Origin: Xylanimonas protaetiae
Lineage (GTDB): Bacteria; Actinomycetota; Actinomycetes; Actinomycetales; Cellulomonadaceae
DNA length: 64,000 nucleotides
Reading direction: 5' to 3'
Assembly (NCBI RefSeq): GCF_004135385.1
Contig: NZ_CP035493.1
Location: 1,798,001-1,862,000, forward strand
How positions within the stretch are numbered: position 1 is the stretch's first letter; each line of letters starts with the position of its first letter. Of this stretch, positions 43,963 through 50,746 are shown one piece after another. The translations under genes were made by a program, and so were the position numbers. A model generated the notes under the pieces. It did no database searches. It worked only from the letters and a program-made list of their open reading frames with translations, and was not told the DNA's origin.

Positions 43963-44002
43963 CGAAGGCCCGCCCCGTCCATCTGGACGGGGCGGGCCTT
44001 CG
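43963..44002 (+). terminator. Terminator after rplA
   Basis: 18-bp stem (CGAAGGCCCGCCCCGTCC with its complement) and a 4-base loop ATCT. It separates the L11-L1 unit from the sigma factor cassette. No T run follows, as is common in high-GC Actinobacteria. Confidence 0.85.
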
Positions 44003-44104
44003 CCGTTCCCGGAGGCGCTCCGAGCACATCCCGGAGATCGTGTATCAGACGGTCCTCGGACCGCTCCCTCCTCGTGACAGCAGCGGACCGACCTGGAGGG
44101 TGAA

Positions 44105-44866
44105 ATGCGGACCGACCGGCACTCCACCCCTCTCGTCGACACACGGACCCCCCTAGGCTCGTCGCGACCGGGAGGGGGCCAGGGTGCACCGGCGATCTCG
44201 TTCGAGGAATGGATGACTGCAGACGACGTCGTGCCCGCCGACCTTCCCGAGGACGACGACAGCATCCCGGTACCCGAGACGCTCGGGGACCGGGCGGCGG
44301 TCGCGCTCCTGGAGTTCCGGGAGGGTCGCACCGCGGCGCTGACGGAGCTGGTCCGCGAGGCCACCCCGCTCCTGTGGCACACCGTGCGCGCCCAGGGCGT
44401 CGACCGCGACACCGCGGACGACGTCGTGCAGGGCGTCTGGGCGGCGCTGGTGCGGCACGCGCACACGATCGCGGAGCCGCACGCCGTGCTCAAGTGGCTG
44501 CTCGTCACGGCCCGCCGGGCGGCGTGGGAGTCCGTGCGCCGCGCGCGCGAGGACCAGCGGCGCCGTTCGGAGCTCCCGGACGACTCGCCGACGAGCACCT
44601 ACGTGCTGCCCGCCCCCGAGCCCGGCCCGGACGCGCACGTGCTGCGCGACGAGCGCGACCGGGCCGTCTGGCGTGCCCTGGAGCGGCTCCCCGAGCGGTG
44701 CCAGGAGCTGCTGCGACTCGTCTCGCTCGCGAACCGTCCGGACTACCGGATGATCTCCGCGGCGATCGGCATGCCGGTGGGCAGCATCGGCGCCACCCGA
44801 GGGCGGTGTCTCGCGAAGCTGAGATCCGTCCTCCACGACATGGGGGAGGACCCATGGACAGCCTGA
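44105..44866 (+). CDS. ECF-type sigma factor heading the protease cassette
   Basis: 253 residues, ATG 44105 with a GGAGG site (alternative ATG at 44213 would drop 36 residues). Sigma-2 region: ALTELVREATPLLWHTVRAQ and DDVVQGVWAALVRH. Sigma-4 region: LERLPERCQELLRLVSLANR, MISAAIGMPVGSIGATRGRC with the HTH, then KLRSVLHD. The N-terminal 65 residues are acidic and extra to the ECF core. No classical anti-sigma factor is adjacent; the next gene, overlapping by 13 bases, is the only candidate regulator. Confidence 0.9.
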   Translation: MRTDRHSTPLVDTRTPLGSSRPGGGQGAPAISFEEWMTADDVVPADLPEDDDSIPVPETLGDRAAVALLEFREGRTAALTELVREATPLLWHTVRAQGVDRDTADDVVQGVWAALVRHAHTIAEPHAVLKWLLVTARRAAWESVRRAREDQRRRSELPDDSPTSTYVLPAPEPGPDAHVLRDERDRAVWRALERLPERCQELLRLVSLANRPDYRMISAAIGMPVGSIGATRGRCLAKLRSVLHDMGEDPWTA

Positions 44867-45354
44867 CCTTCTCGCCGGACGCGCCGCTCGACGACGGCGA
44901 CGTAGCCGTCCTCGCGTCGTTGGGGCGCGCGTTCGCGGAGCTCGACCCGGTCCCCGACGGTCTCGTGGAGCGGTCGCAGTTCGCGATGACGCTCGCGGCG
45001 CTGGAGGAAGAGGCTGCCGAGGTGATGGCCATGGCGCACGTCGAGGCGCTCGCGGGGGCGGTGCGTGGCGACACCGCGCCCGTCGAGGCGCGCACGATCA
45101 CCTTCACGCACGAGTCGCTCACCGTGATGATCGCGCTCTCGCCGTCGGACGACGGGCGCGTGCGCGTGGACGGCTGGCTGGCGCCGGCGGCACCGCTCGT
45201 CGTCGAGCTCCGTCAGCCGGACGGCGACCAGTCCACGACGGCCGACGACGACGGCCGCTTCTCGTTCGACGCGGCCGACCGCGGCCCCGCGTCGCTGCTC
45301 ATCCGGCTGGCCGACGAGGGTACGAAGGTGACGACCCCGGTGGTCGAGCTGTGA
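44854..45354 (+). CDS. Unknown protein between sigma factor and S8 protease, candidate regulator or substrate
   Basis: 166 residues from ATG 44854, overlapping the sigma gene by 13 bases. The N-terminal 65 residues are helical and acidic ([40 protein letters not shown]). The C-terminal part is beta-rich ([38 protein letters not shown]), similar to small carboxypeptidase-regulatory-like modules that present turns for binding. It could hold the sigma factor inactive or be a protease target, but there is no motif that proves either. Confidence 0.75.
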
Positions 45355-47252
45355 GCGGGGGCGAGCACCACGACCACCGGGGGTACGTCGCGGACCGGCG
45401 CGACCCGGACACGCCGCGCCGGCTCCAGTGGCGCACGCGCGCCCTGGACCCGACGACCGCGCGGCGGTCGGCGGGCCACGCGTCGCCGCAGCCCACGTGG
45501 TACGTGGGGGACCGCCTGCTGCTCGACGCCGCGGCCCCCGCGCCGGACGACGCGAAGGAGTGGCTGCGGCCGCTGAACCGCGTGGCGAAGCCGCTCGGCC
45601 TGCGCGTCGAGATCGAGCAGGAGACCTACGACGACCTGGAGCTGCTCGACGAGGCGGCGCAGGCCGGCGGGTTCGGCACCGAGCTCCGCGACCACCTGCG
45701 GCGCGTCATGGGCACGTCCGCCGTGCTCGTGCGCCGCTCGGAGGGCCAGCTCCCCGACGGCTGGGACCTGCTCGCCGCTGTGCGCGCGCTGCGCGACCAG
45801 TCGGCCGTCAACCCGGCCGCGCTGGGCGACCTGCCGGCACCGCACGCGGTCGCGCTCGACCACGTCATCGTCCCGGGCGCCATCGGCGGCGCCACGGGGG
45901 TCCAGCCGCAGCCCTTCACGGCGACGCAGCCCTTCATCGTCGGGCAGACCGCGACCATCGGGCACCCCGTCCTGGGGCAGACCGCCACGATCGGTCACCC
46001 GGCCACGATCGGGCACACCGCGACGATCGGCCACCCCGTGACGGGGCTGGCGGAGTACGCGGTGCAGGGCTGGGGTGGGCGCCAGCCCGTCGCCTGGACC
46101 GGCCCGGCGCCGCGGGGCACGATCCCGGCCGTCCCGGGCGACCCCTTCCGTGGTCCCGGCGAGCAGCGCCGCCCCGTGGTGGCCCTCATGGACACCGGGG
46201 TGGGGCCGCACCCGTGGTTCGGGCTCGAGGGGGAGAAGCGCCCGGCCCACGTCGCCTGGACGGAGGACGACCGGGCGCGCCCCGACGTCGTCGTCCGCCA
46301 CCCGCGCGTGCTCGGGCGCCCCATGGGCCTGTGCCCCGACCCGGCGACGCGGTACGAGGACACCGAGATCGGGGGCGTGTCCATCGACCCGCTCACCGGG
46401 CCGCTCGACCCGGTCGCCGGGCACGGCACGTTCATGGCGGGCCTGGTGCACCAGGCGTGCCCCGACGCCGTCATCCTCGCCCCGCGCGTGTACGCGGGCT
46501 CGGGCGTCGTGCCGGAGCGGGACCTGCTGCGGTCCCTGCGCCGGCTCCTGCTCTGGCACCTGCTCGGGCTGGCCGGCGTGACCGGGTACAGCCCCGTCGA
46601 CGTCGCGGTCCTCTCGCTCGGCTACTACCACGAGCGCCCCGAGGACGCCGCGTTCGACCTGCCGCTCGGCACCGTCGTCGACGAGCTGCGCCGCTGGGGC
46701 GTGCTGGTCGTGTGCTCGACGGGCAACGACGGCCAGGTGCGCGAGACCTATCCGGCCGCGTTCGCACCGCGCCTGGACCGACGCACGGAGCCGCCGACGC
46801 CGCGCGCGCCGCTCAGCCCGACCGAGCCGCCCGTCCTCGCCGTCGGGGCGCGCAACCCCGACGGGACGACGGCCCTGTTCAGCAACGACGGCGACTGGGT
46901 CACGTGCCTGCGCCCCGGCGCGTCGCTGATCAGCACGGCCCCGATCACGATCGACGGCGTGGTCGCCCCGACGCGGCACATGCCCGAGCTGTTCTCGCGC
47001 GGCGCGCGCGCCACGATCGACCCGGAGGGCTTCCAGGGCGGGTTCGCCGTGTGGAGCGGCACCTCGTTCGCGGCCCCGGTGCTCGCGGGCGAGCTCGCCG
47101 CGCTGCTGCTCGAGATCGGGATCCCCGCGCCGACCGCGCCGGTCGCGGGCGGCGACCCGGACCGGTGCCTGCGCGTGTGGCGTGCGGTGACCGCCGCGAC
47201 GGGCCTGACGTACGAGCCGGCCGGGACGTCCCCGGGAGGCGCCGTCGGCTGA
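45351..47252 (+). CDS. S8 (subtilisin-like) serine protease
   Basis: 633 residues, GTG 45351 in GTGA overlap. Catalytic triad in order: Asp281 in [14 protein letters not shown], His358 in [14 protein letters not shown], Ser572 in [14 protein letters not shown]; oxyanion Asn459 in CSTGNDGQV. The first ~180 residues form an extra N-terminal domain ([20 protein letters not shown]), then a repetitive linker of TATIGHP-type units (~195-230). There is no signal peptide, so the enzyme likely acts in the cytoplasm, unlike most subtilases. This fits the intracellular cassette. Confidence 0.92.
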
Positions 47253-47329
47253 CGCGAGCGGGTGAAAAACGGGGCCGGCATCGGGGAAAGCCCTCCCGGC
47301 GTCCGGGGGCTCCGTCGTACCCTCGGCTG

Positions 47330-49902
47330 GTGGTCCAGGCCATCGAGCACGCCCGGGCGCTCTACGAGACGGCCCACGCCGCCGACAACGCCGGACGCTT
47401 CTCCGACGCGCTCGACGGGTACCGCACCGTGGCCGAGGTCCTCGACGGCCCGGCCCTGGACGGACGGTCGCGCGACGCGTCGGCGCTGCTCGTGCGAGCG
47501 TGGCTCGGGCAGGCGCGGTGTCTCTACGAGCTGCACGGCGACAAGCCCGCGGCGTTCGCCCTGCTCGACGGCGCCGAGGAGCGCTGCGAGCGGGACGGTC
47601 TGCCCGACGACCTCCTGGCCGTCCAGGGGCAGCGGGGCCTCCTGCTGCTGCGCGCCGGCGACCTCGACGCCGCGATCGTCGCGCTGGACAAGGTGGCGCC
47701 CGGCCCGGACGCGGAGCTCACGCTCGACCTCGGCATCGTGATGCTCAACCGCGGCGCGTTCCACCTCGAGGCCGGCGACCCCGACGCCGCGGAGCCCGAC
47801 CTGCTCCTGGCCGCCGAGGTCGCGGAGAAGACCGGGTACGCCCCGCTGCTCGCGGCCGCCCGGCACAACCTCGGCTGCGCGGCCTTCCGGAAGGGCGACC
47901 TGCCGCGCGCGCTGCGGGAGATGGGCCAGGTCGCGGGCGACCTCGACCAGGCCGTCACGGCCCTCGACCGCGGGCGCGTCCTGGCCGACGCCGGCCTGGT
48001 GACCGACGCCGCCGCCGCGCTGGCGGAGGCGGCCACGCTCGCCGGGTCGGACGCGCTCACCGCCGCCGAGGCGCAGCTCGAGCTCGCGCGCTGCCTGCTC
48101 GACCTGCGCCGGCACGAGGAGGCTGCCGCGGCCGCCGCCCGCGCCGCACGCACCTTCGAGCGCGCGGAGAACCCGGGCTGGGCGGCGCGGGCGCGCGTCA
48201 TGGTGCTCGAGTCCGAGCTCGCCGCGGACCGCTTCACGCGGACGCGGGCCCGGGCGGAGACGCTGCGCGAGCGGGCCGCCCGCGCCGTCGAGCTGGCCGC
48301 CTACGGGGAGTCGGGTGGCCTCGTCGGCCGCCTGACGGTGGCGTACCCGTCGCTGCTCGCGGCCGCGGAGTGGTCGGTGCTCGCGGGCGACCTCGACGCG
48401 GCGCGCGCCCATCTGGGCCGCGTGCCCGCGACGCTCGACATGGCCCCGCTCACCCTGCGGCTCGCCCGGTCGGCCGTCGTCGCCCGCGTGGCCTTCGCGG
48501 AGGGCCGCCGGGCGGCGGGCCTGCGCGCGATCCGGCACGGCCAGACGGTCCTCGCCGAGCACCGCGGCCTGGGCTCCGTCGAGGCTGTCGCCGCGAGCGG
48601 CGTCCACTTCATGCACCTCAACCTCGTCGACACCCAGGCCGCCCTGGACACGGGCGACGCTGCCGCGCTCTTCGACGCGCTTGAGCGCGGCCGGGCCGCC
48701 GCGGCGGGCGCCGCCCGCCTGGTCCCGCCCGACGACGCGGTGCTCGCAGGGCTGCTCGAGCAGGCACGCGCCGAGCACCAGGCATCGCTCGCCCTCGGCC
48801 CGACGGGCGATCCCGACGGCCTGCGCCGCAAGCGCCAGCACCTCGTCCAGGCCCGCCGCTACGAGGCGGAGGCGCGCGAGCGGTCGTGGCAGATCGAGGG
48901 GGAGCGACGGCCCGTCGAGCCGACGACGGCGCGGGCCGTCCGCGCCGCGCTGCGCGACTCCGCCGCGGACGCGCGCCCGGTCGTCGTCTCCTTCGCCACG
49001 ATCGGCGGCCACGCGATGGCGGTGCGCGTCGACGCCAGCGGGCCGTCGCTGCACGCGCTCGGGCGGCGCGGCCAGGTCATGGAGCTGACCCGGCGCGCGC
49101 GCGCCGACCTCGCCGTCCTCGCCAACCCCCTCATCCCGCGGGCGCTGGGCGACGCCGCGGGTGCGTCCCTCGCCCGGACGCTCGGCCGCCTCGACGAGCT
49201 GCTGCTCGCCCCGCTCGGCGTCGACGGGGACCTGCACGTCGTCGCGCGCGGCCGCCTGCTCACGCTGCCCTGGTCGGCCCTGCCGTCCCGCGCCGGCCTG
49301 CGCACCTGGGTGCGGGACCGGGTCGACCTCAGCCCCGGCCTCGTCGCGGCCGGCGCCGCACGGTCGGGCGGCGTGGTCGTCGTCGCCGGGCCCGGGACGG
49401 ACGGCGGGTCCGACGAGGCGGAGGCCGTCGCCGGCGTGTGGCCGGGTGCCACGCTGCTCACCGGCCCGGGCGCGACGACGGCGGCGACGGCGGACGCGCT
49501 GCACGCCGCCTCTGTCGTGCACATCGCCGCGCACGGCGGCCACGCGGCGGACAACGCGATGTTCTCCACGCTGCGGCTCGCCGACGGCCCGCTGTTCGCC
49601 CACGAGCTCGACGGCATCGACCTCACGGGCGCCGTCGTCGTGCTCTCCGCGTGCGACCTCGGCCAGTCGACGTCCGACGTCGGGGGAGAGGAGCTCGGGT
49701 TCGCGAGCGTCCTGCTCCGCCACGGCGCCAGCGCGGTCGTCGCGGCCGTCGCCCCGCTGCGCGACGACGTCGCCGTCCGCGTCATGCCCCGGCTCCACGA
49801 GGGCCTGCGCGCCGGGTTGCCCCCGGCACGGCGCTCGCCGCCGCGACGGCGGGCGAGGCGCTGCCGGTGCCGCTGGTGTGCTTCGGCCCGCTCGTCGTGT
49901 GA
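47330..49902 (+). CDS. TPR-CHAT caspase-like protease (apparently frameshifted at 49814-49816)
   Basis: Start GTG 47330 ([19 protein letters not shown]). Residues ~1-480 are TPR-like helical repeats ([60 protein letters not shown]). A linker leads to the CHAT domain (~530-857) with the dyad His735 ([16 protein letters not shown]) and Cys775 ([11 protein letters not shown]). At GGG 49814-49816 the frame changes; the next frame reads [20 protein letters not shown] and ends GPLVV-stop at 49902, the usual CHAT C-terminus. One missing G explains it (857 residues if restored). As given, the frame has no stop and runs on through the L10 leader into rplJ. Confidence 0.88.
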
Positions 49903-49995
49903 GCCCGCCTGCCGTCTGAGCCCGCTCGTCGCACGAGCCCGCCTGCCGTGCGGAGCGCCGCCGGCGCGATGTGACCGGCGTCGCCCGGCGCCGGT

Positions 49996-50024
49996 TTCGG
50001 GTTCCGGCCTGCGTCCGGTACAGT
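49996..50024 (+). promoter_or_regulatory. Promoter for rplJ-rplL
   Basis: TTCGGG (49996-50001), 17-base spacer, TACAGT (50019-50024). The -35 is weak. It lies inside the cassette/L10 spacer, so L10-L12 synthesis can be independent of the cassette. Confidence 0.5.
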
Positions 50025-50224
50025 TCTCGGGTAACCCAAGACCGCCGGTCGTCTCCGGCTGCCCTTCCAGGGCGGTCGCTGACCGAAGTCCCGCAGAGCA
50101 CGCGGGGGCCTGCGCAGGTGACACCAGCTTGTACGAGCCCCGGTGCGCGCCTGCGCCGGGGCTCCTTCGTTTTCCGGGGCTTCGCCATCCTGGATCCGGC
50201 GGGACCACCATCGGAAGGATTGCC
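50025..50224 (+). promoter_or_regulatory. L10 leader (ribosomal protein autoregulatory region)
   Basis: A 200-base leader before rplJ, where the L10(L12)4-binding leader is found in bacteria. Its last large element is a terminator-like hairpin at 50135-50164: GAGCCCCGG and CCGGGGCTC with inner pairing, followed by CTTCGTTTT. L10 binding to this leader represses its own synthesis (established in other bacteria); the exact folding was not computed. Confidence 0.75.
50135..50173 (+). terminator. Attenuator-like terminator in the L10 leader
   Basis: 9-bp GC stem with further inner pairs and a following CTTCGTTTT run at 50165-50173. It is the only hairpin in this region with a T tract, which suggests conditional termination before rplJ. 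Confidence 0.6.
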
Positions 50225-50746
50225 ATGGCGAGGCCGGACAAGGCAGCCGCTGTCGCAGAGGTCGCGGACAAGCTCCGCGAGTCCAACGCGGCCGTGCTGA
50301 CCGAGTACCGCGGGCTCACCGTCAAGCAGCTCAAGGAGCTGCGGCGGGCGCTCGGCGGCAACGCAACCTACGCCGTGGTGAAGAACACGCTCACCCAGAT
50401 CGCGGCCAAGGAGGCGGGTGTCGAGGGTCTCGACGCCGACCTCAAGGGCCCGTCCGCCATCGCGTTCGTGACCGGTGACCCGGTCGAGTCCGCGAAGGCC
50501 CTGCGTGACTTCGCCAAGGCGAACCCCGCACTGGTCATCAAGGGCGGTGTCCTCGACGGGCGCCCCCTGACCGCTGCGGAGATCACGAAGCTCGCGGACC
50601 TCGAGTCCCGCGAGGTGCTGCTGGCCAAGGCGGCCGGCGCGATGAAGGCCAAGATCAGCCAGGCTGCCTACGCCTTCACCGCCAAGCCCGCCCAGGTCGC
50701 TCGCGTCATCGACGCCCTGCGTCAGAAGCAGGAAGCCGCTGCCTGA
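50225..50746 (+). CDS. rplJ: 50S ribosomal protein L10
   Basis: 173 residues, ATG 50225 with [27 protein letters not shown] start; central [19 protein letters not shown]; helical C-terminus binding L12 dimers ([17 protein letters not shown]). Note the upstream CHAT frame is in phase with it in the sequence as given. Confidence 0.98.

What the first reader, a model, noticed from the sequence alone, without database searches (positions are those of the whole stretch)
44105..49902. Sigma factor / unknown / S8 protease / TPR-CHAT protease cassette between rplA and rplJ
Seen: four adjacent plus-strand genes, the first three overlapping, encode an ECF-type sigma factor, a 166-residue unknown protein, a signal-peptide-free subtilase with full triad (Asp281, His358, Ser572) and a TPR-CHAT protease with His735/Cys775. 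They sit between L1 and L10 genes that are normally adjacent, with a terminator before and a promoter after. Known: in type III-E CRISPR, TPR-CHAT (Csx29) cleaves Csx30, which releases an RpoE-type sigma factor. Inference: this cassette may be a CRISPR-free protease-to-sigma switch, with the 166-residue protein as inhibitor or substrate. Two different proteases in one cytoplasmic operon imply a cascade.
Basis: partly seen in the sequence, partly recalled or inferred. Interest (0 to 1): 0.85.

Follow-up and report, generated by a model that had tools for sequence, protein, structure and literature searches.

The report
Autoregulated sigma factor with two proteases
An actinobacterium carries a conserved gene set (a transcription switch, its small partner protein and two protein-cutting enzymes) that looks as if it switches itself on; the gene grouping was already reported, but I found no paper in the library searched that tests how it works.

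Summary
The four genes are real and strongly linked: in 80 named loci found with P166 (the 166-aa protein) as bait, a sigma gene is present in 80, CHAT in 78 (both misses are cut contigs), S8 in 68. The grouping is not new: a review reports subtilase, "carboxypeptidase" and CHAT genes beside ECF54 sigma factors and proposes proteolytic control (PMC8999054, passages). Added here: (1) the core is sigma-P166-CHAT; S8 is optional, so an obligatory two-protease cascade is unlikely; (2) P166 shows no enzyme domain: two helices, a flexible linker with an Arg71 kept in 85 of 85 rows, and a beta-sandwich; (3) GTATC-N17-CTYY precedes the first cassette gene in 62 of 79 cassettes (shuffle mean 0.13), so the sigma probably drives its own operon; (4) 23 of 78 loci have a divergent copy, 18 of them before a trypsin-like, APH-like or HopA1-like gene. 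CHAT folds like Csx29, but membership in the CRISPR circuit fails. That P166 restrains sigma and CHAT cuts P166 is untested. The window's CHAT gene has a frame break near its 3' end.

The parts
43963..44002 (+). 18-bp GC hairpin after rplA, possibly a transcription stop before the cassette (no T run)
   Evidence: fold -54 kcal/mol, z -6.5; not listed by the terminator scan
44042..44067 (+). conserved promoter-like pair GTATC-N17-CTCC, 63 bases before the sigma start
   Evidence: present before 62 of 79 related cassettes, shuffle mean 0.13
44105..44866 (+). ECF-type sigma factor (ECF54-like gene context)
44854..45354 (+). P166: two helices (14-30, 37-66), flexible linker with invariant Arg71, beta-sandwich (79-166); likely sigma partner
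45351..47252 (+). S8 protease without an evident signal peptide (triad D281/H358/S572); optional member of the cassette
45942..46037 (+). TATIGHP-type peptide repeats between the N-terminal part and the catalytic domain of S8
   Evidence: seen in the sequence; too irregular to reach the threshold of the repeat test
47330..49902 (+). TPR-CHAT protease (H735, C775); frame break at about 49,820-49,830, tail in another frame to the stop at 49902

Best explanation
An autoregulated, ECF54-type sigma switch. P166 is made together with the sigma factor (overlapping genes) and most likely holds it inactive through its helical N-terminal part. On a signal sensed by its TPR part, the CHAT protease cuts P166 in the flexible linker, plausibly at Arg71, and frees the sigma factor. 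The sigma factor then reads GTATC-N17-CTYY and switches on its own operon, in some lineages also a divergent trypsin-like protease, APH-like kinase or HopA1-like gene. The S8 protease is more likely an output of the switch than part of it. Shown by computation: linkage, the core/accessory split, domain layout, the promoter-like motif and its position. Inferred: that this sigma reads that motif, that P166 binds sigma, that CHAT cuts P166, the signal, and the end effect.
For: P166-based search gives sigma in 80 of 80 loci, CHAT in 78 of 80. Sigma-P166 pairs also occur without a CHAT hit in the stretch held (6 of 20 wider loci), so P166 goes with sigma first of all. P166 model: linker 66-78 at pLDDT about 50 between two confident parts; Arg71 is the only residue outside the beta-sandwich that is invariant in all 85 rows. 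CHAT dyad present in 44 of 45 rows, the other row having a gap there at its contig end. Top PDB fold match of CHAT is chain B of the Cas7-11/Csx29/Csx30 entry 8eey, by its length Csx29 (E 1.4e-13); human separase is also among the best. Motif before 62 of 79 cassettes, at spacings 13-16 and 18-21 before 0-12, shuffles mean 0.13, maximum 2; it stands before S8 when S8 is first (8 of 11). Divergent copies in 23 of 78 loci against 0-3 at other spacings. In the Csx29 circuit the middle protein Csx30 also has two domains and a flexible linker, its N-terminal domain is enough to bind the sigma, and the sigma has motifs in its own locus (PMC10028731, passages).
Against: No binding, cleavage or transcript data. 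Arg71 is also kept in 7 P166-like proteins with no CHAT hit in the stretch held (L167-L171, L174, L176), so it need not be a CHAT site; 6 of those 7 genomes hold a strong CHAT hit elsewhere. P166 matches no known anti-sigma by sequence or among the 50 listed fold matches, none of which reaches E 0.001. Csx30 itself is cut in a loop of its C-terminal domain, not in the inter-domain linker, and its N-terminal fragment alone did not inhibit its sigma. The review that names ECF54 assumes no anti-sigma factor. The motif was found on the same upstream regions on which it was then counted, and those loci are related; in the wider set of 18 cassettes it is present in only 4. In the window's own genome the pattern occurs 3 times against 9 in the control, so no regulon beyond the cassette is shown. 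The window's own CHAT is frame-broken.
Confidence: 0.42

Rival explanations
1. Direct degradation, as proposed for ECF54: there is no anti-sigma factor; the proteases keep the sigma factor low by degrading it and a signal stops this.
For: Published proposal (PMC8999054 passage); two proteases encoded beside the sigma gene.
Against: P166, the likely 'carboxypeptidase' of that context, shows no enzyme domain; one protease is dispensable; one motif stands before sigma and proteases together, which fits an on-switch better than a degradation loop; sigma-P166 pairs occur without linked CHAT.
Confidence: 0.2
2. Proteases are outputs only: P166 senses the signal itself (its beta-sandwich binds a ligand) and controls sigma as anti-sigma or co-activator; CHAT, S8 and trypsin-like proteases are effectors of a response, perhaps against phage or damaged proteins.
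For: The cassette and divergent protease genes lie behind the same motif; in Cellulomonas a trypsin-like gene stands where S8 is missing (11 of 11 S8-less loci with CHAT); sigma-P166 pairs without linked CHAT exist.
Against: CHAT is kept with sigma-P166 in 78 of 80 close loci while S8 is not; an invariant residue in a flexible linker looks like a handling site rather than a ligand site. No PADLOC defence model matches well (best 6.7e-6).
Confidence: 0.28
3. S8 (not CHAT) activates the sigma factor by cutting P166, and CHAT activates S8 by cutting its peptide-repeat linker, a true cascade.
For: The repeats sit between N-terminal and catalytic parts of S8, where a zymogen would be cut, and keep their peptide while codons differ.
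Confidence: 0.1

Closest known systems
ECF54 group of ECF sigma factors (context: carboxypeptidase, subtilase, CHAT)
   Same: Gene context as described in PMC8999054 (passages); no classical anti-sigma gene
   Different: P166 shows no carboxypeptidase enzyme domain; core/accessory split, motif, divergent genes and peptide repeats are not in the passages I read; the source surveys (NAR 2021, J Bacteriol 2015) were not held, so they may contain some of this
Type III-E CRISPR protease circuit Csx29-Csx30-CASP-sigma
   Same: TPR-CHAT fold (top PDB match), ECF sigma, two-part middle protein with flexible linker, motif before its own genes
   Different: No RAMP match in the genome; P166 profile matches no PDB chain below E 0.2; Csx29 model 20.9 bits against a cut-off of 300
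Class V lanthipeptide dehydration pair (APH-like kinase + HopA1-like lyase; known to me from a search listing and recall)
   Same: APH-like or HopA1-like genes behind the divergent motif in some relatives; both, with a trypsin-like protease, in L162, where I did not check for a motif before them
   Different: No HopA1 match in the window's genome; no precursor peptide sought

Membership tests
ECF54 | ECF sigma with regions 2 and 4 | tested here: met
   Sigma70_r2 28.6 bits (cut-off 24); sigma70-ECF 62.3 bits (cut-off 42.9) over residues 78-242; the region 4 model alone is below its cut-off
ECF54 | neighbours with subtilase, CHAT and carboxypeptidase-type domains | tested here: met
   S8 and CHAT above Pfam cut-offs; the third only as a weak carboxypeptidase regulatory-like match, below cut-off
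ECF54 | match to the ECF54 model or its reference protein | not testable with these tools
   model and source papers not held
Csx29-Csx30-CASP-sigma (type III-E) | Csx29 family score over cut-off | tested here: not met
   20.9 of 300 bits
Csx29-Csx30-CASP-sigma (type III-E) | Cas7-11/gRAMP in the genome | tested here: not met
   no RAMP (PF03787) match in the own genome; the control rang in 4 of 14 genomes
Csx29-Csx30-CASP-sigma (type III-E) | Csx30 homologue | tested here: not met
   profile of P166 against PDB chains: best E 0.21, FlgD
Csx29-Csx30-CASP-sigma (type III-E) | TPR-CHAT fold with His/Cys dyad | tested here: met
   (fold of the relative L102)
Zinc-binding or membrane anti-sigma factor | Cys/His zinc motif or transmembrane helix | tested here: not met
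   P166 has no cysteine and no long hydrophobic stretch (read from the sequence; no predictor run)
Class V lanthipeptide cluster | APH-like kinase and HopA1-like lyase near the window cassette | tested here: not met
   no hit to the three family profiles in the window, no HopA1 match in the genome

The most novel reading that the evidence does not exclude
A widespread CRISPR-free counterpart of the Csx29/Csx30/sigma circuit: a caspase-like CHAT protease cuts a soluble two-part anti-sigma protein at an invariant linker arginine, the freed sigma factor fires GTATC-N17-CTYY promoters, and the output is a set of exchangeable serine proteases with tandem peptide arrays, in some lineages together with a kinase/HopA1 pair that may dehydrate Thr/Ser residues, possibly in those arrays.
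Probability: 0.22. Interest if true: 0.85.

Novelty: new member of a known kind. Interest (0 to 1): 0.58.

Why it matters
The only experimentally shown case known to me (from PMC10028731, and recall) in which a caspase-like CHAT protease controls a sigma factor is a CRISPR system. This cassette would show that the same logic exists on its own across many Actinobacteria, with a defined candidate promoter, a defined partner protein and a single testable residue. It would also turn the ECF54 group from a prediction made from gene neighbourhoods into a circuit that can be rebuilt in a test tube.

Tried and rejected
Regulon search: the promoter pattern in the own genome (3 sites against 9 control) and in 59 genomes is about as frequent as its control. 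One own site lies 69 bases before an aegerolysin/metalloprotease-like frame (L181), but a relative of that protein was found in only 1 of the 58 other genomes searched, and only to part of it, so I dropped it as chance. Arg71 as a CHAT-specific site: weakened. P166 as Csx30 relative: no match. Defence system by PADLOC: no good match. Genes between rplA and sigma, or CHAT and rplJ, in ten other loci (they look like GH18 chitinase, DUF4383, phosphatase and transporter genes; names recalled, no family search run) differ between genera. Natural sigma-P166 fusions: none in 80 loci. The codon analysis took repeat units by a fixed peptide pattern, so the near-zero difference at codon positions 1 and 2 is by construction; only the spread at position 3 (median 0.33 over 37 arrays) is informative. 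Automatic gene starts can miss sites: L047 has a match 123 bases before its S8 start (listed as G029:C10:45481) but was scored as missing. Selections: A5 holds the window and 61 of the 81 P166 frames; A6 holds the window and 44 of the 97 CHAT frames, with partial and frame-broken ones (such as L111, L122, L127) left out.
Full report
Observation. Sigma (44105-44866), P166 (44854-45354) and S8 (45351-47252) overlap; CHAT begins at 47330. Families: ECF sigma, S8 peptidase, TPR-CHAT; P166 has only a sub-threshold carboxypeptidase regulatory-like match at its C-terminal half. The S8 triad is invariant in 17 of 17 aligned rows and the CHAT His/Cys pair in 22 of 22, and in 44 of the 45 rows of a wider, selected set, the other row having a gap there at its contig end. 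One correction: the CHAT frame breaks near 49,820-49,830 when its two frames are held against relatives, and the open frame then runs into rplJ. This may be an assembly error.

Linkage. Among 59 genomes (own included), 22 match the S8 protein. I fetched regions for 20 of the 21 others (G040 was left as a short locus). Of these 20, 16 (L031-L046) hold sigma, P166, S8 and CHAT together (L033, L034 with CHAT cut by the contig end), and 12 of those 16 also show both L1 and L10. L047 holds all four with CHAT on the other strand and a weak P166 match, again beside L1 and L10; L049 and L050 hold sigma, S8 and CHAT without a P166 match; L048 none. Of 20 further regions taken at rplA in genomes without an S8 match, 4 hold sigma-P166-CHAT without S8 at the same place (L051, L052, L058, L063), two of them (L051, L052) from the window's own genus; of the other 16, 10 have the L1 and L10 matches less than 800 bases apart (for example L053 of the same genus), 4 further apart, and 2 show no L10 in the stretch. 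A named search with P166 as the only bait found 191 loci and kept the best 80: sigma 80 of 80, CHAT 78 of 80, S8 68 of 80 (in L131 the S8 hit belongs to a second version of the cassette); L1 and L10 hits are both present in 59 of 80. In Occultella, Phycicoccus, Actinopolymorpha and Rugosimonospora, for example, no L1 or L10 is near and S8 comes first, so the genes travel together.

Core and accessory. The 11 named loci with CHAT but without S8 are all Cellulomonas (a twelfth S8-less locus, L150, is a contig end). All 11 carry a divergent trypsin-like gene. L051 and L052 lack S8 and show no trypsin-like hit. Further out, 33 of 396 genomes of the phylum, own included, have a P166 match; of 20 regions examined from these, 19 have a sigma hit and 13 a CHAT hit in the stretch held. 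Sigma-P166 is therefore the smallest recurring unit.

P166. AlphaFold2 with 62 rows gives two helices, a linker at residues 66-78 with pLDDT about 50, and a beta-sandwich at pLDDT about 96; pTM 0.56 means the two parts are not fixed to each other. Arg71 is identical in 85 of 85 rows while its neighbours vary; the four other fully invariant residues (F84, G107, G134, F136) lie in the sandwich. Of these 85, 7 come from loci without a CHAT hit in the stretch held. I see no zinc motif and no enzyme domain. The word carboxypeptidase in the ECF54 description may come from this regulatory-like fold; I could not read the source surveys to check.

CHAT. The model of an intact relative (Oerskovia flava, L102) has pLDDT 90 and pTM 0.85. 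Its top PDB match is a Csx29 complex (8eey chain B, E 1.4e-13, TM-score 0.37 by query length), followed by a ciliary repeat protein, the anti-sigma factor DdvA and human separase. The DdvA match is probably through the repeat region (inference).

Promoter. Upstream regions of sigma share GTATC, 17 bases, CTC. Over 80 loci and both strands this spacing gives 94 sites in 67 loci; other spacings from 12 to 22 give 1 to 18 sites. Within 450 bases upstream of the first cassette gene, 62 of 79 cassettes have GTATC-N17-CTYY, against 0 to 12 at spacings 13-16 and 18-21 and a shuffle mean of 0.13 (first-order Markov shuffles, 100); 54 times before sigma and 8 times before S8 (of 11 S8-first). In the whole-genome relatives, some of which are the same genomes, it is 18 of 24; in the wider phylum 4 of 18, against 0-2 at other spacings and 0.03 in shuffles. 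The window's copy is at 44042-44067. The motif was found on part of these same regions and the loci are related, so these are not 79 independent events; the spacer between the boxes, however, varies freely. A second, divergent copy occurs in 23 of 78 loci, 0-3 at other spacings; the hit to a trypsin-like gene (11), an APH-like kinase gene (4) or a HopA1-like gene (3) begins 41-151 bases further on, with none assigned in 5 (one of the five, L145, does have a HopA1-like frame there). In L131 a trypsin-like gene has its own site 5.5 kb from the main sigma promoter, though directly behind the P166 of the second cassette version. Genome-wide, the pattern is not enriched over its control.

Peptide arrays. 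By a simple lag test (score 12 or more), 48 of 100 S8-bearing loci and 12 of 15 with the trypsin-like protein show tandem peptide arrays, mostly of period 6 or 5 (S8) and 4 (PFTE, PFTQ) (these counts include near-duplicate strains, the same genome fetched twice, and a few that look like chance, such as L132). The window's own TATIGHP repeats are visible but below that threshold. Units differ between lineages (PYTQPF, PFTSH, PMYAGH, GYGDGV ...). In 37 of 37 arrays examined the units are not all identical at DNA level, median third-position difference 0.33 (units picked by peptide). In S8 the array lies between the N-terminal part and the catalytic domain.

Working model. See best explanation. 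Shown: linkage, core/accessory split, layout, motif. Inferred: the molecular steps. The Csx29 circuit, as read in passages of PMC10028731, is the closest working analogue: an ECF sigma inhibited by a two-domain protein that a TPR-CHAT protease cuts, with sigma motifs in its own locus. Membership in type III-E fails on three tested features. Membership in ECF54 is likely from gene context but could not be tested with its model.

Literature. Searches for ECF54, for CHAT with sigma and protease terms, for the array peptides (no paper) and for subtilase/CHAT/HopA1 combinations listed no experimental study of this cassette in the held library, judged by titles and abstract starts. Read in passages: PMC8999054, PMC10028731 and PMC8195603, the last describing other caspase-type systems with ECF sigma genes. 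The class V lanthipeptide comparison rests on a search listing and recall.

Noticed in passing
window 49820-50746: After the CHAT frame break the open frame continues without a stop through the spacer and through rplJ, so the sequence as given could encode a CHAT-L10 read-through protein of 1,138 aa.
   Followed up: partly
L133:7245-9092 (-); also L128, L131, L135-L140, L142, L147, L153: Trypsin-like protease with weak NAL1-like N-terminal match and, in most copies, a PFTE/PFTQ repeat tail, divergent from the sigma operon and behind the same motif.
   Followed up: partly
L162:12464-16067 (+): Trypsin-like protease, APH-like kinase (also a weak hit to ternary complex associated domain 9) and HopA1-like gene in a row, divergent from S8-sigma-P166-CHAT.
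   Followed up: partly
S8 genes of many relatives; weaker in window 45942-46037: Tandem peptide arrays, mostly hexapeptide, whose unit differs by lineage, often with Pro-aromatic-Thr; codons differ between units.
   Followed up: partly
L041, L044, L045, L104, L107-L110, L112, L113, L115-L118: CHAT gene duplicated in tandem in Promicromonospora and Antribacter; in L111 and L122 the CHAT hits fall into several frames.
   Followed up: no
L131:1878-13084: Two different versions of the cassette side by side between rplA and rplJ in one Cellulomonas MAG.
   Followed up: no
L169:10220-12190: Frame beside a P166-like gene without a sigma hit begins with GHGLYPA repeats and continues like an AMP-ligase (likeness recalled, not searched).
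   Followed up: no
L181 (own genome 632762): Aegerolysin-like plus metalloprotease-like frame 69 bases after a GTATC-N17-CTCC match; not conserved, probably chance.
   Followed up: yes
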